In this document: piece by piece, positions 7,343 to 64,000 of the stretch
How positions within the stretch are numbered: the stretch's first letter is position 1
How the letters are laid out: each line of letters begins with the position of its first letter
Assembly: GCA_030407315.1 (NCBI GenBank)
Contig: JALQPE010000192.1
Coordinates: 62,001 to 126,000, forward strand
Direction: 5' to 3'
DNA length: 64,000 nt
Source of the DNA: Asparagopsis taxiformis
Taxonomy: Eukaryota > Rhodophyta > Florideophyceae > Bonnemaisoniales > Bonnemaisoniaceae
Notes under the pieces: generated by a model
The model's input: only the letters and a program-made list of their open reading frames with translations
The model's database searches: none
What the model was told of the DNA's origin: nothing
Program-made: the position numbers and the translations under genes

Positions 7343-7434
7343 TGTTTCGGGTGGTAACGGAGGCGGTTTTTCGCGCGGCGGTTGTGTCGTCGCGCTTCGC
7401 GTGTCCGTTGGGTGAGGAGGAGTCGGCCCACCCG

Positions 7435-9761: not shown

Positions 9762-10419
9762 TGTCATACCACGGAGTGGTCTGCCCTTGTGGGGTCGTGT
9801 CGACATCCTATTGGACGACCCCGGTTCCGGAATAACCAATGGAAACGGCCTCGCTGTACATCAGACCAGTGAGGGAGAGGGACCCATTGGGACAACTAAA
9901 GACCCCACAAGGGGCAAATTTTAACTAAGCTGACTCAGCTAACTTTACACTGTAACACTAACAGTCGGTGATCTCGCGGGCTCCCGCAGTCGCCATAATC
10001 AGGGATCTGATTGGTGCACATAAGGATATTTATTCCTAACTGTCTACCTACCCTAACTGTTTACAGTAACTTAGTCTAGTATAAAATGCCTCTGGATTAG
10101 CCAGAGTGCTTAACCTTTAGAGGTAACGTAAACTCGCGTGGAATTTACGACTCCACTGAACAGTGTTTGCATTGCTCAATTCTATCCTTCCAGGACGAAT
10201 TAGCTTTAGCTATACAGCTCGACGGGTTACGTCTTTTGCTCCATCAATACGCACTTCGTGCGTGAGCACCCTCAACCTTCACCCGGCATTACCGGAAGAC
10301 CTTTCGTGGTATACTCGCTATTGGCAGTTGACGCAAGATTCACTTGCTCTACCACACTACCGAGGCTCGGGACACCTGTAGGGTGGTTTTGCCGCTTTGC
10401 GGATTTTCTACCTACTACA
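9762..10419 (+). repeat. 5' LTR of element B
   Basis: This 658-bp terminal repeat starts TGTCATACC, ends CTACTACA and is repeated at 57969-58626 without any difference that I could find. A TATAAAA box at 10080-10086 is the probable core promoter. It is followed directly by the primer-binding site. Confidence 0.96.
10080..10086 (+). promoter_or_regulatory. Probable TATA box in LTR of B
   Basis: TATAAAA lies in the middle of the LTR. An equivalent box is at the corresponding place in the LTR of C, which supports a shared promoter. No transcription start can be fixed from sequence alone. Confidence 0.55.
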
Positions 10420-12466: not shown

Positions 12467-15400
12467 CCGGGGGGAGTGAGGTGTCGCGCTCCCGCCAGGA
12501 GGTGGAACAGCTTAGCTGTAAGGTGGACATCTCACCATCCACACCTCCACAGGGTGGAACGAAGAAACCAAAACGGTTGAACCGTACTATCCAGACACCA
12601 ATAGGGGATATCCCTTATCCCCTCCCCTCTCAGCCAAAGGCTGCATGTCTTTTGAAGGCAGCCCACTACGTGGTTTTAGGTTCTATCGGAATATCCGAGA
12701 CACTTCTAACTCCTATGCGTATGGTTATGGACACAGGTTCAGGCCCTTCTGTCGTCCGAGAATCAACCTTACCCAAAGGATGGAAGACCTATGCCGCGTA
12801 GACCGGGAACATTCGTCAACTGGCAGACGCCAATGGTAATCCTCTCAGGATAACAGGAAGAATCAAGCTGCTAATACAGCTAGTACGTAAGGTTCTGGAC
12901 GCAGAATTCTTTGTAGCACCTAAGCTGGCAGTACCAGTTATCCTGGGAACAAGTATCATGAACTCACATGTAGATGCAATTCGATGCCGCGCTCAGCGCA
13001 TTGATGTACACGATGGAGGCTCGATCGCCATCCTGCTTATGCAGAATGTGAGTAAATTGAACAACTCTTCTTCTTGCTATGTACATGAACCAAACCCTCC
13101 GCAGGGTACCTATCTGGACCACCAGTCAAACCGGATCCGGCTAGCAAGAGAAATCTCAATTCCCCCCATGAGTCAAGTAACCGCATCGGTTGTCTGTGCT
13201 GGGGGCGGACTAAGCCTCCTCGAGGCGGAGGAAAAACTTTTCCACCGACAGCAGATCTCAGTGCCGAACGGCATTGCCGAAATCATTCCTCGAACAGTCT
13301 TCACTGTTATCCTAACGAATTTTGGTTCAGCAGAACGATACCTCCCGAAGGGGACGGTTGTTGGAATTGCTTGTCGAGCACCCAGCACAGCCGATCGAAA
13401 GCTCCCCAGTGAGTTATCCTCTTCCGGCTCATACCGTATCATCAGTCTAACCAACCCGATGACGGGAACCAAGGAGAAAGAGAATCCGCAATGGCGGGAG
13501 GATGTATCCTTGGAACACCTTCAACAACCACAGTTGAAGGAGAAAATTATTGCGATGCTATCGCAACATGAGTCCATGTGGGATGGGTCTCTTGGAGATA
13601 TTAAAGCAACCGAGCATCGGATTGATATAGTCGAAGGAAGTCGACCGCATCGACAGCAACCATACCGAATGGGACCCTTGAGGAGGGAGCTAGCAAGTAA
13701 GGAGATCATCTCCATGCTAGAAAAAGGTGTCATCGAGCCCTCGAACTCTGAATGGGCTAGCCCAGTAGTCCTGGTACCCAAGAAGGATGGTAAGCTACGC
13801 TTCTGCGTTGACTACCGTCGTCTCAACGATATCACCATATCGGACGCTTACCCATTGCCCCGCATGGACGATTGCATAGACTCCTTAGGAGATGCACGCG
13901 TGTTCACCACGCTTGATTGCAATTCAGGCTATTGGCAGATACCCGTTGCCTCCGAGGATCGGGATAAGACGGCTTTCACGTCACATCTTGGAACGTATCG
14001 GTTTAAACGACTGCCCTTCGGGCTGAAGAATGCACCAGCCACGTTCCAACGTGCGATTGACATTATCCTAAGCAGAGTACGCTGGCAAACATGTCTCATC
14101 TATCTTGATGACGTCATCGTCTTCTCACGTAGTGAGGAAGAACACCTCCACCAAGTGGACCAGGTACTCACACTGTTGAGGACGGCAGGGGTAACCCTCA
14201 AGCTAGCCAAGTGCCACTTCTTCGAAGCAAAGGTAGACTACCTTGGACATGTTGTCATGCCAGGTAAGCTGGCGGTCGCCCAAACGGCGACGGATGCTAT
14301 CGCGAAAGCAACTTTTCCAACCACCCCTACGCAAATGCGTTCCTTCCTGGGGAGCTGCTGTGTCTTCCGCCGTTTCGTCAAAGGGTACGCGGATATCTCC
14401 CACCCCCTCAACGCGATGTTGACCAAGGAAAAACTACCGAACTTCGGTTCAAGTCCTCCAACGGCGGAACAACGCCACGCGTTCGATAAACTTGAAGAAT
14501 CTCTGGTGCAACCACCGATACTGGCTCTGCCCAAGGTGGGTAAACCCTACATCGTAGATACAGACGCCTCTGCGTATCAGATAGGGTGTGCGCTGTTGCA
14601 ACAGCAGGATGACGACGACTATCGTCCTGTAGGATATTGGTCGCGGACCTTGACCAAACCCGAACGGGGATATTCTCCGACGGAACGCGAGTGTCTCGCC
14701 GTAGTATGGGCAGTCACTACCCTTAGACCGTACCTAGAACAAACAAAGTTCGTTGTGAGGTCCGATCATAAAGCGTTGCGTTGGTTGATGAATATCACTG
14801 ACCCGTCAGGGCGCCTGTGTCGTTGGCGGCTCCGCCTGTCGGAGTTTGACTACACTATAGTCTATCGTCCCGGAAGGGTTCATCAAGTACCAGACGCGTT
14901 ATCGCGTGTCGAAACGGAAGGGGTAGACCCCCATCCAGTGGATGACGAAATACCCACGCTCTTCGCGTATGACCTGCACCAGGAAATACCTGTTACCGAT
15001 GAGATGAACCCGTGGTTCTTTGATGTACTCATTGCGCGGACTCCCGCTGACACGTCCCTGATGGATGAAAACCAAACTGTCATGACGACACATCCTCAGA
15101 CACAATGTTCCGAACCAATAACACTCAACGAGTGGATAGAGGAGCAACGCTCTGATGACTTTTGTCAACAAATATTGACAAGTCAGAAGTCTGACACTGT
15201 CTTCTTCGAAGATGTCCAAGGTGTCTTGCGACGTAAATCCACCCTTGACAATTCCCACCAAGTGGTTGTACCAAGAACACTCAGATCCCGCCTGTTGAAG
15301 ATGTGTCATCACGACATACTCGCGGGTCACCCCGGACAAAACCGAATGTATGAGACCATGTGTCTCTCGTACTACTGGCCAGCCATGGCCGTGGGTATCA

Positions 15401-15530
15401 CCGCTACGGTTGAACGTTGTCAGCCTTGCGCTAGAAACCGACTCAAGTTGCGTAGATACGCTAACGCCTTGAAATTATTCCCAGCTTCAGCACCGCTGGA
15501 AGAAGTCTCTATAGACCTACTAGGCCCTCT
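12467..15530 (+). CDS. Pol of element B, first part: protease, RT, RNase H and integrase N-terminus
   Basis: The pol frame is -1 relative to gag. C has an ATG overlapping the gag stop, but B has changed bases there and lacks that ATG. The protease has MDTGSGPSV, but a TAG at 12799-12801 follows a few codons later; the same frame is then open to 15530. RT has VDYRRLN, LPFGLKNAPATFQR and YLDD. RNase H has the TDAS and TERECLAVVW motifs. Integrase begins with AGHPGQNRMY and CQPCARN. The coding sequence is cut right after the LLGPL of the integrase core by element C, and resumes at 42501. Confidence 0.93.
15526..15530. repeat. Target-site duplication of element C, left copy
   Basis: CCTCT here and at 42496-42500 flank element C exactly at its TG and CA ends. 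Five base pairs is usual for Gypsy elements. Confidence 0.93.
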
Positions 15531-16216
15531 TGTCGTACCGCCTGGCGGTCCTCGCCGATCGAGGCGTGTCACTTCCCTATTGGGTACCCACTTAAGGGGT
15601 GTGCCAATCACAAGGCACCAGCCAACTGGCGTGTTTCCTATACTTGGGACAAGCTAAGGCTGACAAATAACCCTATCCGGGCCCATCGACCCCGGCCAAG
15701 ACCCCACAAGGGGCAAATTTCTAACTTAAGCTAACCAGCTGTACATTACAATGTAAGCCTAACTGGCAATAACCTCGCGGGTAGGCGAGTGCCGTTAACT
15801 GGGCTCTGGTTGGTCAATAACTGGATATTTATTCCTAACCACTAACCCTAGCTTACAGTAGACTTAGTATAAATACGCCACTGGAATAGCCAGTAGGCAC
15901 GGTTTCTAGAGTAACGTAAACTCAAGTGGAATTACGACCCATTGGAACAGTGTTCGCATACCTATTGTTCAACCCCTTCCCGGGAAAACCTTAGGGTTAG
16001 CCAACAGCTCGACGGATTACGTCACTCGCTGTATCCATACGCCTCTCGCGTGAGCACCCCTTTGTCGCACAACCTCCTCCGGGTAACGACACCTTCTCTC
16101 TTACGAGACTACCCGCTGGGTACCTATAAGGTTCCTCTGCTCTACCACTTTCTCTACCGAGGCTCGGGACAGCTGTCGGGTGGTTTGCCGCTCTAGCGGA
16201 TTTTCTACCTGCTACA
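15531..16216 (+). repeat. 5' LTR of element C
   Basis: This 686-bp repeat starts TGTCGTACC and ends CTGCTACA. The copy at 41810-42495 differs at three bases by my reading (near 15561, 15598 and 16171). It shares short blocks with the LTR of B, including the CGAGGCTCGGGACA stretch and the final ATTTTCTACCT segment. Confidence 0.95.
15868..15875 (+). promoter_or_regulatory. Probable TATA box in LTR of C
   Basis: TATAAATA occupies the same relative place as the TATAAAA of the B LTR. It is a probable core promoter element for the retrotransposon transcript. Confidence 0.5.
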
Positions 16217-16293: not shown

Positions 16294-18219
16294 ATGCCTC
16301 GTAACCCTACAACGGGACCCTCTAGTGAGGACATAGCGCCTGCCAGCGACTTATCCGATTCGGATCTGATCGCCGAAGAAGGCGTGGTGATTAACACCCT
16401 GCAAGACCGAGCCGACCGAATCTTCAACGAACGGTTGGAAGAGTTCAAGGCTGAATTCAGCACTGTCGTCGAGAAGACTGTTCAAGACCGCAGGGCGGAA
16501 ATCGTAGACGCTACGGTCGAAACCGTCATGGAACTGGTCGAGCCAAAGCTGATGGCCGCCAGCCGAGAAGCCACCCAAGATCGGGACGCCGAGTTCCTAG
16601 CGGAAACCTGGAATCAGGTCAAAGCCGAATTCGCTAAACGCGTATCCCTTTTGGAAACTCGTCTGGAGGAGCTTTCGATTCACGGCTTTAGTGCCAGTCC
16701 ATTAGGACAACAGGAGTTTCCTGCTCGCCGCAGCCGATCGGCTGACTTCCCTGACCCTACATCCGGTAGGGAGGAAGAAGAAGATCCCCGATTGGATCAA
16801 GTCGCAGAAGCAACCCGACACCTGTCGGACCGTGTCGACGCCCTCGCCGAATCACTATCCCAAACAGGGAATATCTCTCGCACGAGACAGCACACTCGTG
16901 CCACCGGATCTGCACCGGAAAATCCCTCGTGAGATGATGAAGAAGGACCCCTTGAGGGAGGTTTAGTGCCCTTGAAGGCCCGCGAACCCGCATTCGACCT
17001 AGTGGTCTCCTATCGGTACTACCGACTCAAGAACAAGTCCCTAACGACTGATACCCCAATGGGTAAATCAAGAAGCTTGTATAAGCTAACGGAGAAGATC
17101 CGTAATTTCAACGCGTCATTCACGCCGTTCGATGGTACGGAACCCATCGATATCCTCCGGTTCCTCGCGGAATTTCAAGATGCATGTGATTCATGCGGAG
17201 TCTCGGAGGGAGAAGCTACCAAGTTACTCAAGTATTTCCTAGAAGGAGAACCTCAAAGGTTTATCGCCGCCGAGGCGCGAAAGCGCAAACTTCTCAACCA
17301 TCTGCATCAGCAGATCACTTGGCCGCAAGCCGTTAACGCCCTTCTGGCTCGCTACGCAACGGACAATGTCCTAGCGGACGCTTATGACGCGGTAACGCGT
17401 ATACGGCAAGGGCCGGATGAAGATGAAGCTGCATACGCAGACAGACTGCAGGACGCTGCTCTCCTGTGTGCGAACGTCTTCTCGGAAAGAGACTTGGTCA
17501 ACTACTACCTCAAGGGCCTACGCCCAGAGGTTAAACACACCGTCAAGGTTACAATCGGCCGCTCCGGCGGGGAAGATTTTCTCGCTGTCTGTAACCTTGC
17601 TCAAGGACTCGGGGACTCTCTAAGAGCTTCGCTGCCCGCAAAGCCGAAGGCTTACCCTACCCGGGAAATTGCCGAACGCAAACGCAAGGCGATGCTCGCC
17701 ACCCTACCCGGGGAGCCGTCCGCAATACCACGGACCCCACCGCCGACATTACCTATCCCTTCTGGGAACTCAACGGGCGCGCCAATACAGGCCCCTACCC
17801 TAACGGGAGAACATCTTAAACTCGCTGAGAGTATGATCCCTGAAGGGGCTGTTACTTGGAGATGCTCTGGCTGTCGCCAACCGGGGCACGTGTTATACAC
17901 TTGCCCTTACCTACCACCCTCAGTGGGAACTTACTTCGCCTTTGCGAACTACGCTTACCAGCAAGAACCGGAACAGGTTATGCGCCGCCAACAGCGCCAG
18001 TCCAATCGGTTCAACCGAAAAGGGGATTACCCTAAAGCCGTGCTCCAACGGTCAAACCCTCCAACACGCATGGTTGCGTTCGCCGATGACGAAAATCATC
18101 CCAACAGCGGCCCAGTAAGGCGAGACGTTTTAGAACGTAACGGATCTTCCGTAACGGCTCAAGACGTTGCCGACGCCCTAGACACCACCGACGACTCCGA
18201 AACGTCGTCGGAAAACTAA
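16294..18219 (+). CDS. Gag of element C, with an in-frame TGA
   Basis: The ATG at 16294 begins an acidic, coiled-coil-rich N-terminus. A TGA at 16930-16932 (codon 213) interrupts the frame, which is then open without shift to TAA at 18217-18219. The capsid-like region (KLTEKIRNFNASFTPFDG, CGVSEG, YYLKGLRPEV) and the CCHC knuckle CSGCRQPGHVLYTC (about 17863-17904) are after the stop. The protein would form the particle shell and bind RNA. The final A of the stop overlaps the ATG of pol (TAATG). That arrangement fits either reinitiation or -1 frameshifting. Confidence 0.92.
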
Positions 18220-21200
18220 TGACGGGGAGTGAGGTGTCGCACTCCCGTCAGGAGGTGGAGCGATTACGCTACTCGGTGGACATCTCACCACAACCACCTC
18301 CGCAGGAAAAGGCTGCAACTCCCTCTAGGGACCAAAGTCTTTCCCAGACACCAACCCACTCGGGTTCCCCCACTGGGACTCGAACACCAAGGCCGAAAGC
18401 CTCATGCCTGCTTAAGGCCGCCCATTACGTAGTAATGGGTTCCATCGGACTCGATCCGTCAGTTCTCACGCCTATGCGTATGGTAATGGACACCGGGTCC
18501 GGACCATCGGTCATCCACGAAAGGAGCCTACCCCACAATTGGGAACAATTCCAAGTCCCTACGGGGAAAGTTCCGCAACTGGCCGATGCTAACGGCAATC
18601 CTCTTCGGATAAAAGGCAAGATAATACTGTCATTACAGTTAGGCCACAAGTCCTTTGAGGAAGAATTCTTCGTCGCGCCTAAGCTGGCCGTACCCCTCAT
18701 CTTGGGAACTGGGGCAATGAACACTCACGTAGACGCAATTAGGTGCCGGGCCCAACGAATTGATATTCACGACGGCGGGTCGATAGCTATCCTAGTGATG
18801 TCGCCTACGCGTAAAACATCCCCCACCCTTTCGTGCTACGTGGATGCCTCACGACCCTCTAATGGGATTAACTTAGACCGCCAGCCTCATGGCATTCGAT
18901 TGTCACAAAGTGTGAATGTTCCTCCGCGGAGTCAAGTGACAACTACTGTTGTCTGTGCCGGTGGCGGCTTGAGTATACTCTCACCGAGAGATCGGATCCT
19001 TCACCGACATCGTGTCTCTATCCCGAATGGGGTTGCGGAAGTCATCCCGCGACAGGAATTCCTGACTATTTTAACTAACTTCGGTACATCCGACAAGTAC
19101 CTCCCTAAAGGGACAATTATAGGCTATGCCCTTCGGGCACCCGAACGGCCAATGCGCCCCATGGCTCTCAGCCGTTCTACCCCTTCCTCCCAAGAGGCCT
19201 CCATTATGGTGACTACTCTCCATCAGGAGCAAAAGGCCGAGGCCACCCAACCATCAAACTAGAAGCAAGAAGTCTCTCTGGACCACCTTGGTCAAATCCC
19301 GTTGAGGGAACGCATCCTTAGCATGCTATCTCGACACGAGTCTATGTGGGATGGATCCCTAGGGGACATCCGCGCTACGGAACACCGAATCGATATTATC
19401 GAAGGAAGTAAGCCTCGACGGCAACAACCCTACCGGATGGGACCCGCTCGTCGAGAGATTGCCCGTAAGGAAATAACCAGCATGCTGGAAAAGGGAGTGA
19501 TCGAACCGTCGACCTCCGAATGGGCTAGCCCAGTGGTACTGGTTCCGAAGAAGGATGGTAAATTACGCTTTTGCGTCGACTATAGGGGTCTGAACGACAT
19601 CACTGTCAATGATGTGTACCCCCTTCCACGAATGGATGATTGCATTGACTCCCTCGGAGATGTTCAAGTATTCACCACATTGGATTGTAATTCTGGCTAT
19701 TGGCAGATCCCTGTTGCACAGGACGACCGTGACAAAACGGCTTTTACCTCCCATTTGGGAACATATCGCTTTAAGCGTTTGCCCTTTGGCTTGAAGAATG
19801 CACCGGCAACGTTTCAACGTGCCATCGACATTATTCTTAGCAGCGTTCGCTGGCAGACCTGTCTGATTTACTTAGACGATGTGATCGTATTCTCTCGGGA
19901 CGAGGCCGAACATCTCCACCATGTGGACCAAGTACTCTCCCTCCTACGGGAAGCAGGTGTCACCCTGAAGTTGACAAAGTGTCATTTCTTCGAAAAGAAG
20001 GTTGACTACCTGGGACATGTCGTGATGCCAGGAAAGCTAGCTGTTGCACAGAACGCCACTTCGGCTATCGCTGACGCGATCTTTCCGCAAACGCCTACGC
20101 AAATGCGATCCTTCCTCGGAAGCTGTGGCGTCTTTCGACGATTCATCAAAGGGTATGCCGCAATTGCGCATCCCTTGAACGAAATGCTGACCAAAGACAG
20201 CGTCCCTAAATTCGGGAAAGAACCTCCTACCGAGGACCAACGCCGCGCGTTCAACGCTCTCAAGGAGGTCATGACCAAGCCGCCGATACTGGCTCTACCC
20301 AAGTTGGGTCAGCCCTACACCGTAGACACGGACGCTTCCGCATACCAAATAGGATGCACTCTGGTTCAGCAGCAAGGGGAAGAGAACGATCTCAAGCCAA
20401 TTGGCTATTGGTCGCGCACCCTGACTAAACCTGAAAGAGGTTACTCCCCTACGGAGCGTGAATGTCTAGCCGTCGTATGGGCTGTCACTATCCTACGTCC
20501 ATACTTGGAGCAAACAAAGTTTGTAGTCCGGACGGACCATAACGCGCTGCGTTGGCTCATGAATATCAACGACCCTTCAGGGAGACTGGGCCGTTGGCGC
20601 CTCCGACTTGCGGAATTTGACTATCAAATAGTCCACCGACCCGGCCGGGTTCACCAACTACCAGACGCCCTTTCGCGTGTTGAAACTAACGGCGAGACGC
20701 CCGTCACTATTGACGATGAAATACCAACTCTGTTGGCCACGCACGCACCGCTAGGTGGAACATCCTTGGATGATGACACGGATATATGGTTCTACGACCT
20801 TTCTCTAGCAAGAGACCACGCCAAAGAGGCGCCTAATCGCAACGGTACACCCGTCTTAACAACCCATCCGCAAACGGAAAATTACTGCCCGATAACTCTC
20901 CAAGAGTGGCTCGAAGAGCAACAATCTGATGACTTCTGTCAACAGGCTCTAGCCTCTCAGAAGTCTGACTCGCTCTTCTTCGAAGATGAAGACGGTGTCC
21001 TTTGTAGGAAGTCCAAACTGGACGGGTCATCCCAGATTGTGGTACCCGAAGCCTTACGGCAACGTCTATTGACGATGTGCCACCACGGCATCTTGGCAGG
21101 ACATCCTGGTCAGAATCGTATGTACGACACGATGCGCCTATCGTACTACTGGCCTGTAATGGCTGCGGACATAACCGGAACGGTTGAACGCTGTTCAGCG

Positions 21201-22244
21201 TGCGCGAGAAACCGATTACGGTTGCGCAAACATGCGAGTACTCTCCAGCTGTTCCCAGCTACCACACCATTGGATGACGTTGCAATTGACCTCCTCGGTC
21301 CTCTACCTCGTACCAAGGAGGGTAACGTGCACCTACTGGTGATATCGTGTCGCTTTACCAAGCTAACCCAAGTGGTTCCCCTGCGAAGCATCACGGCTTA
21401 CCATGTGGCTGTAGCCTTTTGTACACATTGGGTGTTTAAGTACGGTCCCCCACGGACATTATTATCCGATAACGGTCCGCAATTTGCGTCGAAGTTCTTC
21501 CAGGCTGTCTGCCTCCAGTTGGGAACGAAGAACGTCTTCACGACGGCTTACCATCCCCAGACAAATGGGCAAGTCGAACGGTATAACCGTACTCTGTTGA
21601 GCATGCTACGTAATTACGTCAATGATAACCAGGATGACTGGGATGTCTACGCATCAGCGTTAACCTATGCGTACAATACGCACGTGCATCGCACAACGGG
21701 AACCACACCCTTCGACCTCATCCTAAGCCGACCTCCACCGCCATATGCGACTCACCATTCGGTGAAAAGGAGGGCAACGCCAGACGCGTTCACGAAGCAA
21801 AACTTCTTACGCCGTATTACGGACACCATCGATCGATGGCAGCTCGAGCTGGCAGGTAAACGCCTTCACAGCGCGCAAGCACGTTACAAGCGTAACTTCG
21901 ACCGGTCAATACGGAAGTCTAAACGACTCATCACTACCGATGATTACGTTTATCTGGATAACCCAGAAGTCCGTGAACGGAACAAGCTAACGCCAGTAGC
22001 TCAAGGTCCCTACAGGGTTATCCGTGCAGGACGGCGAACGGTTTACATCGACCGCGATGGTATCACCGAAAAGGTTAGTCTCGATAGAGTTGCGCTCGCC
22101 CCGCGTCCAACCGAGGAACCCACCTTGCCACCGAGGCCACATTCCGCCAACGCACAAGCATCACCATCAGGTGCAGACGCCCTCGCGCCGAGTACGCAAA
22201 CACAACAACCACAGGGCAACGGCCAACAACACGCACAAAGCTAG
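18219..22244 (+). CDS. Pol of element C: protease, RT, RNase H, integrase, with an in-frame TAG
   Basis: The ATG at 18219 overlaps the gag stop. Protease has MDTGSGPSV with Asp at residue 91. A TAG at 19260-19262 (codon 348) separates protease from RT, and the frame then runs unbroken to a TAG at 22242. RT has VDYRGLN, LPFGLKNAPATFQR and YLDD (near 19870). RNase H has TDASAYQIG and TERECLAVVW. Integrase has a zinc-binding HHGILAGHPG...CSACARN region and Asp, Asp and Glu in AIDLLGPL, LLSDNGPQF and NGQVERYNR, with 35 residues between the last two. B has no stop where C has the codon-348 TAG. In C the chromodomain lies in the same frame after the final TAG, interrupted by a DNA transposon. Confidence 0.95.
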
Positions 22245-36170: not shown

Positions 36171-36177
36171 ACACTAC

Positions 36178-36525: not shown

Positions 36526-36659
36526 CACCGTGTTGGTTCCATCTATTGTCCCAGGCAGCGTATTTCACTATCCGGCCATGTTGCCTTGGCCAATACAAAA
36601 CACTATCCGCCAACACTGCCCAGTACAGTAAATTACATCATATCCAACTATTGAATAAA

Positions 36660-36883
36660 TCATTAATTTTTACTGTCTCCATTCACTGCCTCAGACAGTA
36701 CTGTGAGACAGTGTTTTTTACTGTCTGCAGACAGTGTTCCGTACTGTCTGCCAGACAGTGCAAATCACTGTCTCCAAGTGTGGCATTAATTTTCATTTGC
36801 CGCATAGTGATTTTTACTGTCTCAGACAGTAAAAATCACTGTCTCGCAGTACTGTCTGAGGCCCCCTTTTCAACACCGTAGTG
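36660..36883. repeat. Right subterminal repeats and terminal inverted repeat of transposon 1
   Basis: Several copies of the CAGACAGT...ACTGTCTG motif precede the terminal CAACACCGTAGTG. Confidence 0.88.
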
Positions 36884-37720
36884 AGCCGTACCCCTTTCGG
36901 TAACTCACCCACAATTGGGAGCGACGCACGCGACCCAAGTCGTTCACCCATGCACCAGGTGCCAACCGACCGCGACCGCACACAATTGCGAAGAAATATA
37001 CGAAGTAGAGAAGCACGCGCTGCCCAGGCAGATGCGGACCAAAGTCGCAACCCTGATAGGGCTCACCCATCGCACAAGCGAACAACTGGCAAGAGTGGGG
37101 CACGCGCTGACACCACAGACTCAGCCCAAAGGCATCCAACTCGCGGAAACGCGAACAAGCGACGCTTAAGCGATGCACGTCCACAGACGCCGACCCCTCC
37201 TCGACGAGAGGCAAACCCTTTAGCGGGAACGAAACCGCGCACTGCGAACCGAACAAGACAAGCACCCACCCGGGTGGCAAACCCCAAACAGGGTCGAAAC
37301 ACTCGCTCAAAGGCGACGGCGAACCCCATAGGGTCATGGGAAACCACTCCCAATGGAGAAGAAGAAAAAGCGCCACCGGGCACCCGACCGAACTCCGAAC
37401 AAGCATCACTCCCTGAAGGGACGAAGGAAACCCCAGAGGGAAGTTGTGATGCCAAATGCACAACCTCGGATGAGGAGTATCCCATCGATGATCTTATAGA
37501 CTACGTCACTGACGACGATGGGGAACAATGGTTCCTTGTGAAGTGGCATGGCTACCGCAAGCCAACATGGACGCAACGAGCGAGTGTTCCCCCCGAATGG
37601 GCATCACGGTACTTCCGTCGTACGCAACACCGTAAGGGTGACAGGCCACCGCGCCGAACACGCACGCGCACACCCAGAAGTGGGAAGAAGTTGCATAACC
37701 CCTCAGGGACGAGAACCTAA
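36884..37720 (+). CDS. Linker and chromodomain of element C
   Basis: This is the second part of the linker after the transposon, then the chromodomain and a basic tail ending at TAA 37718-37720. The linker is rich in Arg, Thr, Pro and Asn and looks disordered. The chromodomain (about 37478-37640) shows YPIDDLIDYV, EQWFLVKWHGY and PTWTQ; the aromatic residues are those expected to cage methyl-lysine. Chromoviruses carry it at the end of integrase to target insertion. A TAG (22242) and the transposon separate it from integrase, but the frame is continuous once the transposon and one AG are disregarded. Confidence 0.88.
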   Translation, partial: SRTPFGNSPTIGSDARDPSRSPMHQVPTDRDRTQLRRNIRSREARAAQADADQSRNPDRAHPSHKRTTGKSGARADTTDSAQRHPTRGNANKRRLSDARPQTPTPPRREANPLAGTKPRTANRTRQAPTRVANPKQGRNTRSKATANPIGSWETTPNGEEEKAPPGTRPNSEQASLPEGTKETPEGSCDAKCTTSDEEYPIDDLIDYVTDDDGEQWFLVKWHGYRKPTWTQRASVPPEWASRYFRRTQHRKGDRPPRRTRTRTPRSGKKLHNPSGTRT

Positions 37721-38279
37721 CAAGGCATCCACCGGGTGGAGCTACCGAGCCTCGGAAGGTCAACCCAGAAAGGGCGCACTTTATCACCGCCAACCGGAGC
37801 CAGTGTGGAAATTGAGATTTTTCGAAAATGAAATTTGGCCAATAGGGGTTCAACAAACAAGTTCACACGTCATCGTGATGATGTATCTTTAATGTACCTC
37901 AGAGGTGCCTCAGGACTACCTGATGAACAAAGGCGCAACGCAAAAGCGTGTTCAAACTACCCTTAGAGGTTTGTGTGGAGGCAATTGCCTGTCCCTAGCG
38001 ACGATAATGGCTCGAAGGCCGAGGCCGCTGAGATGCGGAGGGTGCCGTAGGGGCAAACGCACGCACGTTCGTCGATGGACGAGGATGGCGGGGTGGAACC
38101 CTAGCGTACGTGGGATTGCGACGCAAGCCGCGCTGCGGAACAGCACCGCTACCCCGACGACGGGCAGGCACAGGGCCATGCGAAGGCGCGACCGCAGGTG
38201 CGGGTAACACAACTACAGGGACGGACGCGGAACGCGGAGAAACATCTGGCGACTCAGGCGACCCTAGACGGGCATCCAA
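37721..38279. other. Region between chromodomain and antisense ORF in C
   Basis: Here the sense genes and the antisense ORF converge, leaving about 560 bp. No gene is apparent. Transcription ends or polyadenylation sites for both strands would lie here. Confidence 0.5.
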
Positions 38280-41200
38280 TTACGCAAGCAAAGAAGTACG
38301 AGCGGCAGCAGCACCCTCAGGGGAACGAAGCCGAGTACGCACATTGCGGTCGGGAATACCCTCATCGGGAGACCTAACACGACGACGTGAATAACCAGGC
38401 TGAGCCGCCTCTTCTTCACCCTCCCCGGGAATAACGCGCGAGGCTGAAGCCGCTTGCTCCAGCAGACGCCTGGCGTCACCCAACTCGCCTTCTAGTTCCC
38501 CAATCCGGGTACGCAATTCTGCGGCTTCAAGGCGTGCAGCCTCTATCTCCTTATCTGCCACGCGGCGTCGTTCTCGCTCTTCGCGAAGGCGCTCCCGGGC
38601 GGCATTACGCTGCTCGCGTCCGTGCTTGTAGCGATTAGCCAACGTGACACACGTAAGCGCAAGCGTGTCCAACGCAGAATCCACGAGGAAACGCCCATTG
38701 GCCGAGACGAAAACGGAAGCGACCGTACCATCCCCGATCTCATTGGCCAACCGCCGCACCTCTGGGAGTGACATCAATTCCCGACCGGATAATTCCCCAC
38801 GTAGGATGTTCACAGCGGAAGGCTGACGCGGAGTACCGTCATCACCGGTTACGGATGGCTCAGAGCCTTTGTCGGACGTTAGAAACGCCTCCATGGCAGG
38901 ACCCATCTGGGATGACGGAGCAGCCACAGGCTGAGGGGCTGACGCGGTAGGCGTGGTATCCATGGGGACCGAACCTTCATACAAGTCATCAGAACCACTG
39001 GGTGGTAAGGGAGCAACAGGAGCAAAGCTCCGTCCTGCATAAGGAGAGCGACCGCTCGGGCCTCCCATCTCGGAATTCCACCACGGACGCGGCAGAAACG
39101 CTTCGCCAATAGGCTGATACTTGTACGACTCAGGATCACCGTCAGAATAATGGCCAGGCTCCAAGCCGTAATAACCGTCTTCGGTGAACTCACCATCCCT
39201 ACGATAGGGAGGCAGCTCTGCGGTCGAACCTTCTCGGTGGTTTAAAACGTTGATACGTAACGCCCTTATCGGCAGGTCCACCGTCGTATAGACAACCACC
39301 TTCTCCGGTGCCACTCCTGTGATGTTGGTACTGACCATCTCTTGAGGATAATCATCACCCCCAAGGGCTACCTTAAACAGGCGACGCACTACTGTGCCAG
39401 GTAACTTCCTGCTATGGGGAACCACGTCCGACAGCGGCACCTCCGCGAGACCGTACCAGGTACGACTTACTCTGTTGACGAGTTCCTCAGCCATCACCGG
39501 CACGAAGCCCCGCGTTTCGACGATACGAGCCAACTCGATTCCTATTAGGATATCCCTCTCCAACTCGAGGTACGACCGGAGTCTATTCAACCGCCATGCG
39601 GGCGCTTCGCGAAGAGCGGAATGGTGTAAATACACCAACGACGGAGGGTCGGCGATAGGCAAGCACATCGGCGGAGCCAACTGCCCTTCCCAAATGGGAT
39701 CATCCCATAACGGGTCTAACGCTTCCCTCGATACCCTCATGGGTCTAGTGACCGTCTCAACAGAGCTACCATTACGGTGCGCGAATACGCGATAGTCATT
39801 CGCCGTCACTTGACGCCCCATCATTCGGGAAGTCACCCTAGCGTGAAGTCGCATATGATGCTCATAGTTACCCGTATCGGGACGAGGGGGATACGCGAAC
39901 CAGCGAGACCGAATCATCGGCATGTCCTCTACGGTACCTTGGTACGATTCCTCTTGGAACAAGCGGCGGTTCATACGTTCGACGTAAAGAGCATCCCCGG
40001 GATGAAGGAGAAAAGTCCTGTCGCTACAAAGCGTATGAGGAACACGGAAGTGACGCATCGGGCGACTCGAAGGGAGACGGGCATACGCCGACCAACATTC
40101 ATTTTGCACCTGGTGGCTTTGACCCCGGAGGGAACTCATCAAGAGCATATCGCGACGTAATTCGCTTCGCGGGCGGTCGGTAAAATCCCTACGAGGGAGT
40201 CGCGCGAATGGGTAGTGTTCCCAGGGAGCAGCCAGCTCACGCCTAAACGGCAATGCTTGTGAATCAAACACCATGAGCTCGTCAGCATTAGCTGGATAAA
40301 ATTCCCCCGAGGAACGCCAATTGGCAGTTGGCTTAGGCGCCCGAGGAGGGGTATCATGCGATGGAACCGCCGGCGCTGGCGCGGACGCAACAGCGTAAGG
40401 ATCAACTAGGGCGGTGCCCGACGGCCTCACGCCTGCTGATGTATTAACGGGAACAGGACCAGCCCCACTCCGGGTAACTTTGCCAGAAGAGGCGTACGGG
40501 TCTACAGCCGACTCGACAAGCTGAGCATTAGCTCTTTCGGCCTCTGCCCTTTCGGCTTCTGCCTTTTCGGCTTCCGCACGAGCGGCTTCGCGACGCAACT
40601 CTTCTTCCCTACGCTTACGAGCGTCCGCCAAAATCTGCTGATTGCGGCGACCATAGTCCTCGTAAGGATTCGCAGAAGCGTCACGACCAGAAGAGGTACG
40701 AACCGCAGGAGCGGAGGGACGAGCCAACGACGGCCGGGAGCTTGGCGAAGGCCTAACATTCGACTGCCTCAATGGCTTGGGCGTAGCGCCCCCCTCGGCA
40801 ATAACTTCAACGACCTCTTCGGCAGCAGCCGACATAGCTCCTTTTGGAGACGGCCCGGTGGCCTTAACGGGTTCGCCTTCACGCGATGGCGGATTGGCCG
40901 ATGACGGCTTGGCAGTGGCCACGGGTGTGGACGGCTTCGGGGAAGCAGGGGATTCGGTTGGACCGACGTTGCCACCTTGTGCACTTGCCCTAGCGGGAGG
41001 AACCGACTTCTCGGAGTGCGAAGGAGTCCCGACGACTTTGCCGGAAGGCAAGGCTGTCTCAGCCGAAGCCTTGGCGGCAGTCGAACGAGTTCGCGTTTGC
41101 GATGAAGCCGCGGAGACGATCGGCGCGCTTGTCGCGGGAGTCGAAGAGGACTTGGCCGGCGTTGGCGTGGCCCCGGTGCGGGAAGAGGACGCCTGGTGGC

Positions 41201-41309
41201 GAGTGGTTGGGTGGCGAACGCTTGAACGCGTGGTTGGACGGTTGGGTGAACCCATATTGTCCCCTTCCTCTTCGGAGGATTCGAATTGAATCGGAGCGCG
41301 AGGGGGCAT
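38280..41309 (-). CDS. Complete 1009-codon antisense ORF of element C, unknown function
   Basis: The ORF starts at ATG 41307-41309, about 500 bp inside the 3' LTR, and runs against gag-pol to a stop at 38280. It is uninterrupted, unlike gag and pol of the same element. Residues 1 to about 200 are low complexity (Ser, Pro, Thr, Ala). About 210-270 form a charged helix (EELRREAARAEAEKAEAERA). About 320-800 are a folded-looking core with Trp, Tyr and Pro motifs such as WEHYPFARLPRR, RSRWFAYPPRP and DPLWDDPIW. About 880-960 form a second coiled coil, followed by an Arg/Ser-rich tail. I see no signal peptide, membrane segment or zinc motif. I recognise no family. An env-like, regulatory or RNA-binding role is possible, but none is shown. 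Related ORFs sit at the same place in A, B and D. Confidence 0.8.
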   Translation of the reverse strand: MPPRAPIQFESSEEEGDNMGSPNRPTTRSSVRHPTTRHQASSSRTGATPTPAKSSSTPATSAPIVSAASSQTRTRSTAAKASAETALPSGKVVGTPSHSEKSVPPARASAQGGNVGPTESPASPKPSTPVATAKPSSANPPSREGEPVKATGPSPKGAMSAAAEEVVEVIAEGGATPKPLRQSNVRPSPSSRPSLARPSAPAVRTSSGRDASANPYEDYGRRNQQILADARKRREEELRREAARAEAEKAEAERAEAERANAQLVESAVDPYASSGKVTRSGAGPVPVNTSAGVRPSGTALVDPYAVASAPAPAVPSHDTPPRAPKPTANWRSSGEFYPANADELMVFDSQALPFRRELAAPWEHYPFARLPRRDFTDRPRSELRRDMLLMSSLRGQSHQVQNECWSAYARLPSSRPMRHFRVPHTLCSDRTFLLHPGDALYVERMNRRLFQEESYQGTVEDMPMIRSRWFAYPPRPDTGNYEHHMRLHARVTSRMMGRQVTANDYRVFAHRNGSSVETVTRPMRVSREALDPLWDDPIWEGQLAPPMCLPIADPPSLVYLHHSALREAPAWRLNRLRSYLELERDILIGIELARIVETRGFVPVMAEELVNRVSRTWYGLAEVPLSDVVPHSRKLPGTVVRRLFKVALGGDDYPQEMVSTNITGVAPEKVVVYTTVDLPIRALRINVLNHREGSTAELPPYRRDGEFTEDGYYGLEPGHYSDGDPESYKYQPIGEAFLPRPWWNSEMGGPSGRSPYAGRSFAPVAPLPPSGSDDLYEGSVPMDTTPTASAPQPVAAPSSQMGPAMEAFLTSDKGSEPSVTGDDGTPRQPSAVNILRGELSGRELMSLPEVRRLANEIGDGTVASVFVSANGRFLVDSALDTLALTCVTLANRYKHGREQRNAARERLREERERRRVADKEIEAARLEAAELRTRIGELEGELGDARRLLEQAASASRVIPGEGEEEAAQPGYSRRRVRSPDEGIPDRNVRTRLRSPEGAAAARTSLLA

Positions 41310-41797
41310 CTTAAAAAGCCAGTAGAGGCGAGGAAGGACGTTGCTAAAAACCCTGAAGCGGGATAGACAAAATGGCCTATTGGCTTAAATCTCCAAGAGG
41401 GAGCCGCGGTACGCAACCCTGAATGGGATTCGCAAGGCGATTGGCCGGGAGATGAATTCAAAGCCTCGATTTGGCACCGCTCACGCGATCGCGCGGTAAA
41501 CTATCTTGCAGAGGGAGGCAAAACCCTTTGAGGGATAACGGAAGGGACACGAACTCTCGTACACTGTGGACACCGAAGGGGTGAGTACGCTCTTTCGCGT
41601 GGGATCGATAAGAAACCTGCAACAGGTGTTGATTCCAATGGGAAACGGTCGGTGGACCACCGGAAGAGTCGGATGGACTAAACGAATTTATCGAACACGC
41701 GCCGCGCGCGGGAAATTTTGAATTGCACAATGCAACGGCCACAGCCAAAAATTGTAATTTTTATTTGATCAAATTTTGTCGGGACGACAAATCTCTC
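41310..41797. other. Untranslated region between antisense ORF start and 3' LTR of C
   Basis: This region must hold any promoter of the antisense ORF, unless the LTR supplies it. No TATA box stands out on the minus strand. A short inverted repeat, TGTCGGGACGACA, lies just before the polypurine tract at 41777-41789 and also in B at 57937-57949. Confidence 0.5.
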
Positions 41798-41806
41798 AGG
41801 AGGGGG
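41798..41806 (+). promoter_or_regulatory. 3' polypurine tract of element C
   Basis: AGGAGGGGG, followed by CCA, directly precedes the 3' LTR. It primes plus-strand DNA synthesis in LTR retrotransposons. Confidence 0.88.
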
Positions 41807-41809
41807 CCA

Positions 41810-42495
41810 TGTCGTACCGCCTGGCGGTCCTCGCCGATCGAGGCGTGTCGCTTCCCTATTGGGTACCCACTTAAGGGATGTGCCAATCACAAGGCACCAG
41901 CCAACTGGCGTGTTTCCTATACTTGGGACAAGCTAAGGCTGACAAATAACCCTATCCGGGCCCATCGACCCCGGCCAAGACCCCACAAGGGGCAAATTTC
42001 TAACTTAAGCTAACCAGCTGTACATTACAATGTAAGCCTAACTGGCAATAACCTCGCGGGTAGGCGAGTGCCGTTAACTGGGCTCTGGTTGGTCAATAAC
42101 TGGATATTTATTCCTAACCACTAACCCTAGCTTACAGTAGACTTAGTATAAATACGCCACTGGAATAGCCAGTAGGCACGGTTTCTAGAGTAACGTAAAC
42201 TCAAGTGGAATTACGACCCATTGGAACAGTGTTCGCATACCTATTGTTCAACCCCTTCCCGGGAAAACCTTAGGGTTAGCCAACAGCTCGACGGATTACG
42301 TCACTCGCTGTATCCATACGCCTCTCGCGTGAGCACCCCTTTGTCGCACAACCTCCTCCGGGTAACGACACCTTCTCTCTTACGAGACTACCCGCTGGGT
42401 ACCTATAAGGTTCCTCTGCTCTACCACTTTCTCTACCGAGGCTCGGGACACCTGTCGGGTGGTTTGCCGCTCTAGCGGATTTTCTACCTGCTACA
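41810..42495 (+). repeat. 3' LTR of element C
   Basis: This is the partner of 15531-16216, with TG and CA ends. The CCTCT target duplication follows at 42496-42500. A TATAAATA box is at 42147-42154. Confidence 0.95.
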
Positions 42496-43655: not shown

Positions 43656-44141
43656 GAACCTGCTTCCCAAGACGCCAACAAGACGTTCTCCCGGCTACGC
43701 CGATCAACCCAGAAGGCACCAACCGGAACAAGTCCGAAGAAGAATACTCACCTTCATCGACAAGCAAGAAGCCGGCAACACGGCATGGAAATATCTCAAG
43801 AAGTCACTTCGGCTGAGCCGCTTACCCCTCCGGATGACACGGCTAACACCGGAAGAAGACGACGCTCGTCGAGTCAAGATGTTCCACCCGAACAGGGAGC
43901 TGTCTCCCAGAATCTGGAACCACCTGAAGAACAGGAATTCGCCATAGACGACTTGATCGACCATGTCGTCGACGACGATAATGAGGAATGGTTCCTCGTA
44001 AAATGGTACGGGTACCGTGACCCCACGTGGACGCAACGGCACAACGTGCCTGACGAACAAATCTCCCGATACTTCCGTAAGCGGGACCGCCAAGCGGGTA
44101 AGAAATCGTCTAAAAGAAGAATGGCTAAGAAGCGCCGATAA
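43656..44141 (+). CDS. Linker and chromodomain of element B
   Basis: The frame is continuous with integrase across the TAG at 43653-43655. A linker leads to a chromodomain (about 43938-44092): FAIDDLIDHVVDDDNEEW, FLVKWYGY and PTWTQ. A Lys/Arg-rich tail ends at TAA 44139-44141. It is nearly the same as in C and would bind methylated histone tails to guide integration. An ATG at 43785 could start it as a separate protein. The stop in B is not at the place homologous to the stop in C, so the two arose separately. Confidence 0.9.
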   Translation, partial: EPASQDANKTFSRLRRSTQKAPTGTSPKKNTHLHRQARSRQHGMEISQEVTSAEPLTPPDDTANTGRRRRSSSQDVPPEQGAVSQNLEPPEEQEFAIDDLIDHVVDDDNEEWFLVKWYGYRDPTWTQRHNVPDEQISRYFRKRDRQAGKKSSKRRMAKKRR

Positions 44142-57968: not shown

Positions 57969-58626
57969 TGTCATACCACGGAGTGGTCTGCCCTTGTGGG
58001 GTCGTGTCGACATCCTATTGGACGACCCCGGTTCCGGAATAACCAATGGAAACGGCCTCGCTGTACATCAGACCAGTGAGGGAGAGGGACCCATTGGGAC
58101 AACTAAAGACCCCACAAGGGGCAAATTTTAACTAAGCTGACTCAGCTAACTTTACACTGTAACACTAACAGTCGGTGATCTCGCGGGCTCCCGCAGTCGC
58201 CATAATCAGGGATCTGATTGGTGCACATAAGGATATTTATTCCTAACTGTCTACCTACCCTAACTGTTTACAGTAACTTAGTCTAGTATAAAATGCCTCT
58301 GGATTAGCCAGAGTGCTTAACCTTTAGAGGTAACGTAAACTCGCGTGGAATTTACGACTCCACTGAACAGTGTTTGCATTGCTCAATTCTATCCTTCCAG
58401 GACGAATTAGCTTTAGCTATACAGCTCGACGGGTTACGTCTTTTGCTCCATCAATACGCACTTCGTGCGTGAGCACCCTCAACCTTCACCCGGCATTACC
58501 GGAAGACCTTTCGTGGTATACTCGCTATTGGCAGTTGACGCAAGATTCACTTGCTCTACCACACTACCGAGGCTCGGGACACCTGTAGGGTGGTTTTGCC
58601 GCTTTGCGGATTTTCTACCTACTACA
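57969..58626 (+). repeat. 3' LTR of element B
   Basis: This 658-bp copy matches 9762-10419 without a difference that I found. The AGGCT duplication follows at 58627-58631. Confidence 0.96.
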
Positions 58627-61951: not shown

Positions 61952-62760
61952 TGTAGGACCAGCCGGGATGGCGGTCACTAAGAGAGTTCTAGAATCGCTT
62001 GCCTTGTCAGGGCGTGTTGAACCGTAACGCGCTCGTGAACTTGCGTTTCGCACGTCGCTCGGTCGCGGAGGCGATCGGGTGGTACAACGGCGGAACGCGC
62101 AGGGTCGATCGCAACACGGGATTCGCGGGCCGGCGCAAGCCGTGATCTCAGGGTGAGATCACCGAGTAAACTCGAGCTCAACACGATCCACGCAGGGGTC
62201 GTAAATCCCTGGCCTAGCGGTATGCGACGCAACGCGCGGTCTCGCGGTGCGACGCAATTCGACGGTCGGTAAACGCAGCGCGCGCGCACGTACGTCGGCG
62301 ATCGTGAGCAATCCGCACGCAACGTCGTAACGCAATCGGTCCTCGCGACGCGCTCAACGCTTAACTCGTAGCTGCGAAAGTGCTGACTGTTTATTGGTAG
62401 GGTGCGAAGCCATGCGACCACTAATAGCTAACTTACTTGGGACAGGCTGTCCTTGTGTGGCCGGCCGGCGGCGGCCGCACGCTCGCACGCAAAAAGGGAA
62501 ATATTTTGGGAAAAAGACTTTCGTCATAAAAAACCCAAAAAAGGGAAATAAAGGGAAATTCGCGGAAATCGCTACACGTGGCGCGGCTCGCGGTTTCGTG
62601 GCAACGTACGCGCGCACGCGCTCGCTTTGACGCTCCGTGACACGTAATCAAGGCGCCACGCGTACGCTCGCTTACTAAACTAACTCAAACGGATGCTTGC
62701 GGACTAACGTAAACGCGCGCGCTCGCATCGGTTCCATCGACCAACTTAAATTGCACCACA
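61952..62760 (-). repeat. 3' LTR of element D
   Basis: The 809-bp repeat starts, on the minus strand, TGTGGTGCAATTT and ends GGTCCTACA. It is a diverged relative of the LTR of A. Confidence 0.88.
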
Positions 62761-62947: not shown

Positions 62948-64000
62948 ATGTCGCGCGATAATAACGCTCTGCCGAGTTGGCTTCGCGCCGGCGCTGCACC
63001 TCGCGACGAACCGTCGACGCCCACGAACGCGTCTCCTCGCCCTGCGCGCATCGCGTTTCCTTCTCTTTCAAGCCCGGAGAGTCCCTGTTACATGTCCATG
63101 GCGCAAGCATCCTCCTCCACCGTACCCGTAACCGCGAGCAGCCGTGGCGGCAGTGGCGTCGTCGCTTCGTCTGACGTTGTCGCTACGGTGGATGCGACCG
63201 CGACTCCAACTTCTGCGTCTGCTGCGCGTTCTGGGAGCGGCGTCCCGCTTCGTTCGGTTCCTGCGCCAGCGTCCGTTTCGCTTCCGTCGGCCGCGCAAGA
63301 CGCTCCCGAGTCGATTCCGTGCGCGCGCTACGACGACCCGATCGCGTTCCGTTTCATGCCACGCCCTATGCCGACGTGGGCGGAATTGGGCCGCCGCCAC
63401 TTCTACCCGCAGCGCTTTCAGTGGACGCGCATCGCTGATGTGTCACGCTATGCCGTGTTACCCGGCCATAAGGATGCGCAAGCGGTGTGGGACGCGCGGC
63501 GCGAATCGGCGTTGTGCGATTTGGCGGTCCCCGCGAACTTACCGTGCGACGCGTACTTCCTCGAAGACGAAGCCGACGAACGGCTCGTACGCCACTTGGC
63601 TCTGTTGCGCGTGATGCGTCGCGACGAATTTGCGCGAGTCGATCCATGGGCCGCGGCGCCCAGTGCGGGCTTCTTACTTGACGGCGGCGTTCCGTGGAAC
63701 GAAGTCGAACACGAAGGGGAGGCGAGCGTGCCATGGTTCCTGAACGCGGATATGCGCCCGGAAGCGCGGCGCGAGTTGCGTTTGCGGCGCACGTCGGGCT
63801 ACTTCGTTACGTATCGCGATATCGAATTTCGCGAGTTTCCTGATGACCGCGTCGCCGCTTTCTTCCCGCGATACGATGCGCGCGATTGGCCGGAAGCGCC
63901 CGACTCGTTGTCGGTGCCGCTTCGTCTGTGTTCTCGGAAATGGACGCGGACGTCCACAACCTCTAGTACACCTAGTATTACTAGGCGGACGTCCATGTTC
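62948..64000 (+). CDS. Antisense ORF of element D, N-terminal 351 codons, open at the window edge
   Basis: The ATG at 62948 (MSRDNNALPSWLRAGAAPRD) opens a frame with no stop to the window end. Residues 1 to about 115 are low complexity, rich in Ser, Ala, Thr, Val and Pro, as in the antisense ORF of C. A core follows with Trp, Tyr and Pro motifs (ARYDDPIAFRFMPRPMPTWA, VPWFLNADMRPEARREL). Codons end strongly in G or C. It lies on the strand opposite to the element, just inside the 3' LTR, exactly as in B and C. I recognise no domain. With the A fragment at 1-1524 it suggests a protein of low-complexity head, folded core and coiled-coil tail. Other frames here are short shadows. Confidence 0.7.
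   Translation, partial: MSRDNNALPSWLRAGAAPRDEPSTPTNASPRPARIAFPSLSSPESPCYMSMAQASSSTVPVTASSRGGSGVVASSDVVATVDATATPTSASAARSGSGVPLRSVPAPASVSLPSAAQDAPESIPCARYDDPIAFRFMPRPMPTWAELGRRHFYPQRFQWTRIADVSRYAVLPGHKDAQAVWDARRESALCDLAVPANLPCDAYFLEDEADERLVRHLALLRVMRRDEFARVDPWAAAPSAGFLLDGGVPWNEVEHEGEASVPWFLNADMRPEARRELRLRRTSGYFVTYRDIEFREFPDDRVAAFFPRYDARDWPEAPDSLSVPLRLCSRKWTRTSTTSSTPSITRRTSMF

What the first reader, a model, noticed from the sequence alone, without database searches (positions are those of the whole stretch)
38280..41309. Long antisense ORF shared by four chromovirus copies, with no recognised family
In A, B, C and D a long frame lies on the strand opposite to gag-pol, always between chromodomain and 3' LTR, with its start towards the LTR. 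In C it is complete (1009 codons), in D the first 351 codons are open, in A the C-terminal part ends in a long coiled coil, in B a remnant shares the start and a RPTTRHQAS stretch. The common plan is a low-complexity head, a Trp/Tyr/Pro-rich core and a coiled-coil tail. Antisense ORFs are known from some plant Gypsy elements (for example Retand/Ogre-type), but I cannot link this protein to those. It could be a regulator, a packaging or movement factor, or an env substitute.
Basis: partly seen in the sequence, partly recalled or inferred. Interest (0 to 1): 0.88.

Follow-up and report, generated by a model that had tools for sequence, protein, structure and literature searches.

The report
Antisense third gene in algal retrotransposons
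Jumping genetic elements in what looks like a red alga carry, on the strand opposite to their usual genes, a large extra gene of unknown family that selection clearly keeps as a protein, so it probably helps the elements survive, though how is untested.

Summary
The antisense ORF is real and protein-coding. The window copy (38280-41309, minus) is cut short by an early stop; five full frames read from the same 141-Mb genome encode 1088-1104 aa. It lies between the chromodomain and the 3' LTR of Ty3/Gypsy chromoviruses. Elements B and C carry homologous versions (39% identity). A and D carry a second group (934-945 aa in three copies) with the same position, orientation and plan but no demonstrable homology to B/C. 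The host is inferred to be a red alga, from light-harvesting and phycobilisome-linker genes. Coding evidence: between-type omega 0.15-0.26 (C family) and 0.07-0.13 (A type), stable after mutation-class stratification; ORF indels are all multiples of three, flanking ones are not; pol omega is 0.09-0.34. No Pfam, PHROG or significant PDB match; 5.8 billion proteins gave six relatives, four of them this genome's own (96-99.6%). Antisense genes at this place are known in plant Gypsy elements and in fungal Boty, so this is a new variant of a known kind. Best guess: a nuclear, self-associating, nucleic-acid-binding regulator of the element. Env or movement roles lack support; A-type has one borderline hydrophobic segment. 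Transcription is untested.

The parts
38280..41309 (-). Antisense ORF of element C, 1009 codons, ended early compared with relatives
37998..38279 (-). In-frame stretch after the early stop that still matches the C-terminus of relatives (P0001 residues 477-570)
41310..41809 (-). Leader between the 3' LTR and the ATG; presumed antisense promoter region; purine-rich tract beside the LTR (by eye)
   Evidence: promoter role inferred
41810..42495 (+). 3' LTR of element C
15531..16216 (+). 5' LTR of element C; 3 differences in 686 to the 3' LTR; 5-bp target duplication CCTCT
16966..18219 (+). gag of element C
   Evidence: Retrotrans_gag 25.0 bits (cut-off 24.1)
18219..19262 (+). Protease region of element C (RVP 19.4 bits, below cut-off 20.7)
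19302..22244 (+). RT, RNase H and integrase of element C
36860..37720 (+). C-terminal pol part with chromodomain of element C (17.3 bits, below the Pfam cut-off 25.1)
9762..10419 (+). 5' LTR of element B, identical over 658 bp to 57969-58626 (3' LTR); 5-bp duplication AGGCT
10638..12386 (+). gag of element B
12958..15657 (+). pol of element B (RT, RNase H, integrase zinc region), interrupted near 15530 by element C
43785..44141 (+). Chromodomain part of element B (23.5 bits, just below cut-off), same as in family copies L032/L033
57021..57470 (-). Remnant of element B's antisense ORF (residues 1-153, 88% identity)
57969..58626 (+). 3' LTR of element B
1..1524 (+). C-terminal half of element A's antisense gene; frame 208-1521 holds the coiled coil; the gene starts before the window
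3199..3627 (-). Chromodomain of element A (30.7 bits, above cut-off)
3512..8673 (-). Integrase, RT/RNase H, protease and gag of element A
   Evidence: gag 20.8 bits, below cut-off 24.1
61952..62704 (.). LTR-like repeat at the start side of element D's antisense gene (86% to 58820-59551)
62948..64000 (+). First 351 codons of element D's antisense ORF, running out of the window

Best explanation
It is a third, antisense gene of chromodomain Ty3/Gypsy retrotransposons, here in an apparent red alga. Shown: it is a protein-coding gene kept by purifying selection between element lineages, at a fixed place and orientation, convergent with gag-pol and starting near the 3' LTR. Inferred: it is transcribed from a promoter in the leader or the 3' LTR; its protein self-associates through the helical tail, binds nucleic acid through Arg-rich, Lys-poor parts, and works in the nucleus to regulate or protect the expression of the element that encodes it, a role like that proposed for plant antisense retrotransposon proteins and known for HTLV antisense proteins.
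For: Coding: between-type omega 0.152-0.256 in 11 of 15 C-family pairs computed, the 4 others being close pairs; 0.074-0.126 in 3 of 3 A-type pairs; stratified by mutation class and CpG 0.163-0.216 (6 pairs) and 0.075-0.112 (3 pairs); ORF indels all multiples of three in 6 of 6 pairs (one pair had none) against many 1-2-nt indels in leader and LTR. Fixed layout: opposite-strand chromodomain in 31 of 45 C rows and 62 of 69 B rows, none on the same strand within 2.5 kb; opposite-strand integrase in 33 of 96 A rows and 20 of 56 D rows. Anatomy: 80- and 196-residue helices in the tails, heptad signal in the 3 A-type tails and in L009, C-ends with 16.7-18.2% Arg and 0-0.9% Lys. Precedent: Grande gene23 is nuclear with its own promoter, and a regulatory role is suggested for Retand proteins (PMC7264820 parts 1-2 of 3; PMC11963269 passages).
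Against: No transcript, protein, localisation or binding data. Both structure models are poor (mean pLDDT 37.7 and 41.5). Heptad signal absent in B (830 of 2000 shuffles reach it) and weak in L022 (155 of 2000). No bZIP pattern (0 of 9 proteins) and no shared nuclear-signal-like cluster; two of the three A-type proteins have none. A freely diffusing trans regulator would not be expected to be kept intact copy by copy, so some cis preference is needed. Chromodomains of B and C are below Pfam's cut-off.
Confidence: 0.45

Rival explanations
1. Replication or particle co-factor: the protein joins the gag particle or preintegration complex (packaging, nuclear import, assembly chaperone) rather than regulating expression.
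For: Constraint comparable with pol; Arg-rich ends and a coiled coil also suit an RNA or capsid partner; selection acts on the carrying element, as for gag-pol.
Against: It needs a separate antisense transcript, unlike gag-pol; no capsid, nucleocapsid or zinc-knuckle match.
Confidence: 0.25
2. Partner of the chromodomain in choosing the integration site, inherited with it as a 3' module.
For: Chromodomain and antisense ORF are neighbours and differ together between types while RT is nearly the same: L019 against L027, RT 0.9%, chromodomain 18.7%, antisense segments 13.8-23.0%.
Against: Neighbouring position alone predicts joint inheritance; in L021 the chromodomain is unlike both parental antisense types, and L019 against L009 differs 3.1% in the chromodomain but 5.6-10.7% in the ORF.
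Confidence: 0.15
3. Env substitute or cell-to-cell movement protein.
For: Position between pol and the 3' LTR; A-type has one borderline hydrophobic segment in the core (Kyte-Doolittle 1.77-1.87 over 19 residues).
Against: Antisense orientation, no signal-like N-terminus in 6 of 6 proteins, B/C maxima only 1.05-1.37.
Confidence: 0.06
4. Only the antisense RNA matters, or the long frame is a by-product of base composition.
For: Close pairs have omega 0.17-0.70, three of the four on few changes; GC-rich third positions lengthen frames; leader and convergent gap are also rather conserved.
Against: Low omega after stratification, triplet-only ORF indels, Markov control at most 348 codons.
Confidence: 0.03

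Closest known systems
Retand-lineage elements with TRP28 (PF04195) antisense ORFs, flowering plants (PMC11963269, passages read)
   Same: Long pol-3'LTR region with antisense ORFs; partly coiled-coil (Smc-type) proteins; function unknown, regulation suggested
   Different: Non-chromovirus lineage of flowering plants; TRP28 domain, which was not found here at E up to 10
Maize Grande gene23 and rice RIRE2 antisense ORFs (PMC7264820, parts 1-2 of 3 read)
   Same: Antisense gene between pol and 3' LTR; for Grande an own promoter and a nuclear protein are reported
brtn of Boty-like elements in Botrytis (PMC7264820 and PMC8365987, passages; Zhao et al. 2011 seen only as a reference)
   Same: Antisense extra gene in a non-plant element
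   Different: Fungal host; sequence not available here, so homology is untested
HTLV antisense proteins such as HBZ (recalled; HTLV antisense proteins mentioned)
   Same: Antisense gene starting towards the 3' LTR; coiled-coil regulator (works-like comparison only)
   Different: Much larger protein, no bZIP pattern, unrelated host and element

Membership tests
Chromovirus (Ty3/Gypsy with chromodomain) | Gypsy-type pol with RT, RNase H and integrase | tested here: met
   A, B and C over Pfam cut-offs for RT and RNase H; integrase parts in all three, B's split by element C
Chromovirus (Ty3/Gypsy with chromodomain) | Chromodomain at the integrase C-terminus | tested here: inconclusive
   A 30.7 bits, over cut-off 25.1; B 23.5 and 19.3 (L032), C 17.3, below it but at the right place
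[quoted passage not shown]
   Position and opposite strand, coding selection; 'most copies' only within capped lists
Retrotransposon antisense aORF between pol and 3' LTR (aORF-3R) | Antisense transcript | not testable with these tools
   No RNA data
Retand-type antisense protein | TRP28 domain PF04195 | tested here: not met
   No PF04195 match at E up to 10 in 6 of 6 proteins
Boty brtn | Sequence homology to brtn | not tested
   brtn sequence not fetched
Retrotransposon env-like protein | Signal peptide and transmembrane segment | tested here: inconclusive
   No signal-like N-terminus in 6 of 6; B/C hydropathy maxima 1.05-1.37; A-type one borderline segment 1.77-1.87
HBZ-like bZIP antisense regulator | Basic region plus leucine zipper | tested here: not met
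   Recalled bZIP and L-x6 repeat patterns absent in 9 of 9 proteins; tail profile against C/EBP-beta E 0.099, not significant

The most novel reading that the evidence does not exclude
Red-algal chromoviruses inherited one ancient antisense third gene, common to at least two element groups whose pol is only 48-54% identical. It changes faster in sequence than gag-pol, yet under constraint comparable with pol, and works with the chromodomain as an exchangeable 3' specificity module on a shared pol backbone: an algal counterpart, of independent origin, to retroviral antisense regulators.
Probability: 0.15. Interest if true: 0.75.

Novelty: new variant of a known kind. Interest (0 to 1): 0.56.

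Why it matters
Antisense genes of LTR retrotransposons have been noted in plants and in one fungal group without a known function (PMC7264820, PMC11963269). Here two protein groups without a known family, in over 250 scored matches, with clear coding selection and natural recombinants, extend the phenomenon to chromoviruses of an apparent red alga. They give material to ask whether such genes arise repeatedly or once, and whether they travel with the chromodomain, with the LTR or with neither.

Tried and rejected
Fungal host: assumed at first from the look of the elements. Hydrophobin and Fungal_trans searches gave 0 matches but had no positive control; light-harvesting proteins (10 rows) and phycobilisome linkers (13 rows) were all over cut-off, and contig C1598 carries both and an antisense ORF.

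Homology between A/D and B/C proteins: hhalign, BLOSUM45 local alignment with 200 shuffles per pair (9 pairs, z -0.3 to 2.0) and HMM profiles both ways with shuffled decoys did not show it; a short VP..L.CD..FL resemblance remains a lead only.

Weak Pfam and PDB matches of the coiled coils were judged coiled-coil noise. No fold search was run, because both models have mean pLDDT near 40. Viral contigs: no A-type relative; the B/C search could not run. PHROGs: none. The worry that CpG or GC-rich third positions inflate dS was tested by stratifying and changed omega little.

Rows dropped before a count: I used 136 of the 143 rows, leaving out seven second fragments of copies already listed; the lists were used whole.
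Full report
WHERE IT IS. The window is contig C192:62001-126000 of an unnamed 141.5-Mb genome in 3156 contigs. It holds nested Ty3/Gypsy elements. Element C (LTRs 15531-16216 and 41810-42495, 3 differences in 686, target duplication CCTCT) sits inside the integrase region of element B (LTRs 9762-10419 and 57969-58626, identical over 658, duplication AGGCT). Both look young. Element A lies on the minus strand at the left, D at the right edge. RT and RNase H are over Pfam's cut-offs in A, B and C; gag is over the cut-off in B and C and below it in A; protease is over it in A and below it in C. A chromodomain is over the cut-off in A and below it in B and C, at the expected place.

HOST. Six-frame searches found 10 Chloroa_b-bind rows and 13 phycobilisome-linker rows, all over cut-off. 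Contig C1598 carries one of each and a copy of the antisense ORF. Phycobilisome linkers together with light-harvesting proteins point to a red alga. This is an inference from general knowledge; the species is unknown.

THE ORF. The 1009-codon minus-strand ORF exists as described. Order-2 Markov sequences of the same stretch gave at most 348 open codons in 200 trials. In the genome 45 matches were scored (a lower bound, best candidates only), 41 of 45 without an internal stop in the matched stretch, at 100 down to 81% identity. Five C-family frames read from the conserved Met encode 1088-1104 aa, so the window copy ends early; the rest of the reading frame is still visible at 37998-38279. The Met and the following stretch (M[PT]PRAPIQFESSEEEG) are shared by the copies that keep that end, while the codons upstream differ between types (by eye).

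FAMILIES. P0002 is 99% identical to copies here; it is element B's version, because its neighbouring chromodomain is that of window B. B and C antisense proteins share 39% identity over 1121 aligned positions. A's version was read from three other copies (L034-L036, 934-945 aa, 74-82% identical to each other). D's version is P0006, 99% identical to copies here. The A-type and D-type searches gave 96 and 56 rows without overlap. In all, 266 rows were scored for the four queries (45, 69, 96, 56); a few are two pieces of one copy, and some contigs may be alternative assemblies of one place. A/D and B/C proteins show no detectable homology. For comparison, B against C is 73% identical in gag and 76% in pol, A against C 33% in gag and 54% in pol, A against B 48% in pol. 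The antisense protein thus diverges faster than gag-pol, so loss of detectable similarity between A and C would be expected even with a common origin. A single origin is possible but not shown.

CODING SELECTION. Nei-Gojobori omega between C-family types was 0.152-0.256 in 11 between-type pairs out of 15 pairs computed; the four others are close pairs (0.173, 0.306, 0.617, 0.698). By region, for five pairs: core 0.066-0.169, head 0.094-0.271, tail up to 0.221, a 60-codon linker up to 0.82; one pair had no synonymous change in tail and linker. A-type: 0.074, 0.101 and 0.126 in 3 of 3 pairs, core 0.024-0.041, with dS near saturation. Stratified by mutation class and CpG context: 0.163-0.216 (6 C-family pairs) and 0.075-0.112 (3 A-type pairs). 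In 6 of 6 C-family pairs every indel inside the ORF was a multiple of three (one pair had none) on a nucleotide alignment, while leader and LTR showed many 1-2-nt indels. In the other five frames there were 17-61 stops; omega was above 1 in four of them and 0.19-0.25 in the fifth, the opposite-strand frame whose codon positions mirror the coding frame. Pol in eight of these elements gave 0.088-0.336 over 28 pairs. The leader (about 15%) and the convergent gap (14-16%) differ between the C type and the L022 type less than dS of 0.61 in the ORF would suggest, a hint of constrained regulatory sequence that was not tested further.

LINKAGE AND MODULES. An opposite-strand chromodomain match lies 566-818 bp beyond the query end in 31 of 45 C-type rows, and 338-1891 bp in 62 of 69 B-type rows; none lies on the same strand within 2.5 kb (136 of 143 rows and 110 of 110). 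For A and D, opposite-strand integrase lies 2.0-3.0 kb away in 33 of 96 and 20 of 56 rows; 53 of 95 integrase rows pair with a listed antisense ORF, and one same-strand neighbour was seen. Unpaired rows were not explained one by one; all lists are capped and some copies lie at contig ends or are broken. Of the 136 chromodomain rows used, 31 had a listed antisense neighbour, the antisense list holding only 45 C-type and 69 B-type rows. Of 20 fetched C-family loci, 18 show an opposite-strand pol-side frame of at least 445 codons; L014 and L017 do not. Types share a nearly identical RT but differ in the 3' block: L009 against L022, RT 1.8%, LTR 7.0%, chromodomain 18.4%, antisense segments 14.8-21.9%; L019 against L027, RT 0.9%, LTR 9.4%, chromodomain 18.7%, antisense segments 13.8-23.0% (16 copies; the window copy's pol could not be compared there because of its insertion). 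L021 joins an L022-type head and most of the core to a C-type leader and tail, with a chromodomain unlike both (15.1 and 22.0%). So the types recombine on a shared pol backbone.

ANATOMY AND MECHANISM. Head rich in Pro, Ser, Thr and Ala; core with most Trp and Tyr; helical tail; C-end with 16.7-18.2% Arg and 0-0.9% Lys. The tail helix has 80 residues in C (10-residue means up to 88 pLDDT) and 196 in A (59-80). The heptad signal is reached by 3, 5 and 4 of 2000 shuffles in the three A-type tails and 2 of 2000 in L009, but by 155 in L022 and 830 in B. Otherwise the models are poor (mean pLDDT 37.7 and 41.5), so no fold search was made. Hydropathy maxima over 19 residues are 1.05-1.37 in B/C and 1.77-1.87 in A-type, the latter one segment inside a predicted core helix; no N-terminus looks like a signal peptide. 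No bZIP or leucine-zipper pattern in 9 of 9 proteins. I favour a nuclear, self-associating, nucleic-acid-binding regulator acting on the element that encodes it; everything after 'protein under selection' is inferred. Because its transcript would overlap the 3' end of the gag-pol RNA, double-stranded RNA could also form; that too is untested.

COMPARISON. Antisense ORFs between pol and the 3' LTR are a known kind. PMC11963269 (passages): Retand elements, a non-chromovirus lineage, 97% of clusters with TRP28 antisense ORFs, regulatory role suggested. PMC7264820 (parts 1 and 2 of 3): Grande gene23 nuclear and with its own promoter, others in RIRE2, Retand, PvRetro13 and fungal Boty, functions unknown. 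PMC8365987 (passages): brtn of the Boty-like BcGypsy1, citing Zhao et al. 2011, which I saw only as a reference. No PF04195 match here in 6 of 6 proteins at E up to 10. The listings of searches showed no paper that by title or abstract start treats such genes in red algae; that is not proof of absence, as listings were cut and most subscription papers are not held. In 5.8 billion proteins three searches, each scoring only about 8000 candidates, found P0001-P0006; P0001, P0002, P0004 and P0006 are 96-99.6% identical to copies in this genome, P0003 (81%) and P0005 (72-74%) are not close to any fetched copy and may be further subfamilies here or come from a relative. I therefore file it as a new variant of a known kind.

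Noticed in passing
L031:1655-4465 (+), contig C192, about 10 kb beyond the window's right end: A 937-aa ORF joining an N6/N4 DNA methylase domain (PF01555, E 2.4e-15) with a SET domain (PF00856, E 7.6e-7).
   Followed up: partly
window 60251-61978 (+); L030:4317-8525 (-); L029, upstream of the window: Repeated large ORFs (up to 1403 aa) that by eye recall a ParB-like stretch and a 2OG-oxygenase-like H-x-D...H stretch; Pfam matched none of the two tested.
   Followed up: partly
window 26959-31832: Dense direct and inverted repeats built around a short palindrome (TTACAGCAAAGTCATCG...), inside the insertion that splits element C.
   Followed up: no
window 36146-36600, 48277-48995, 52517-52949: Tandem arrays with 35-bp, 118-bp and 116-bp units.
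   Followed up: no
window 45073-46596 (+): A 507-codon ORF without a Pfam match over cut-off, between B's chromodomain and its 3' LTR, where B's antisense gene would be expected.
   Followed up: partly
L021 (C1673:31820-41819): Natural mosaic element: L022-type head and most of the core, C-type leader and tail, a chromodomain unlike both.
   Followed up: yes
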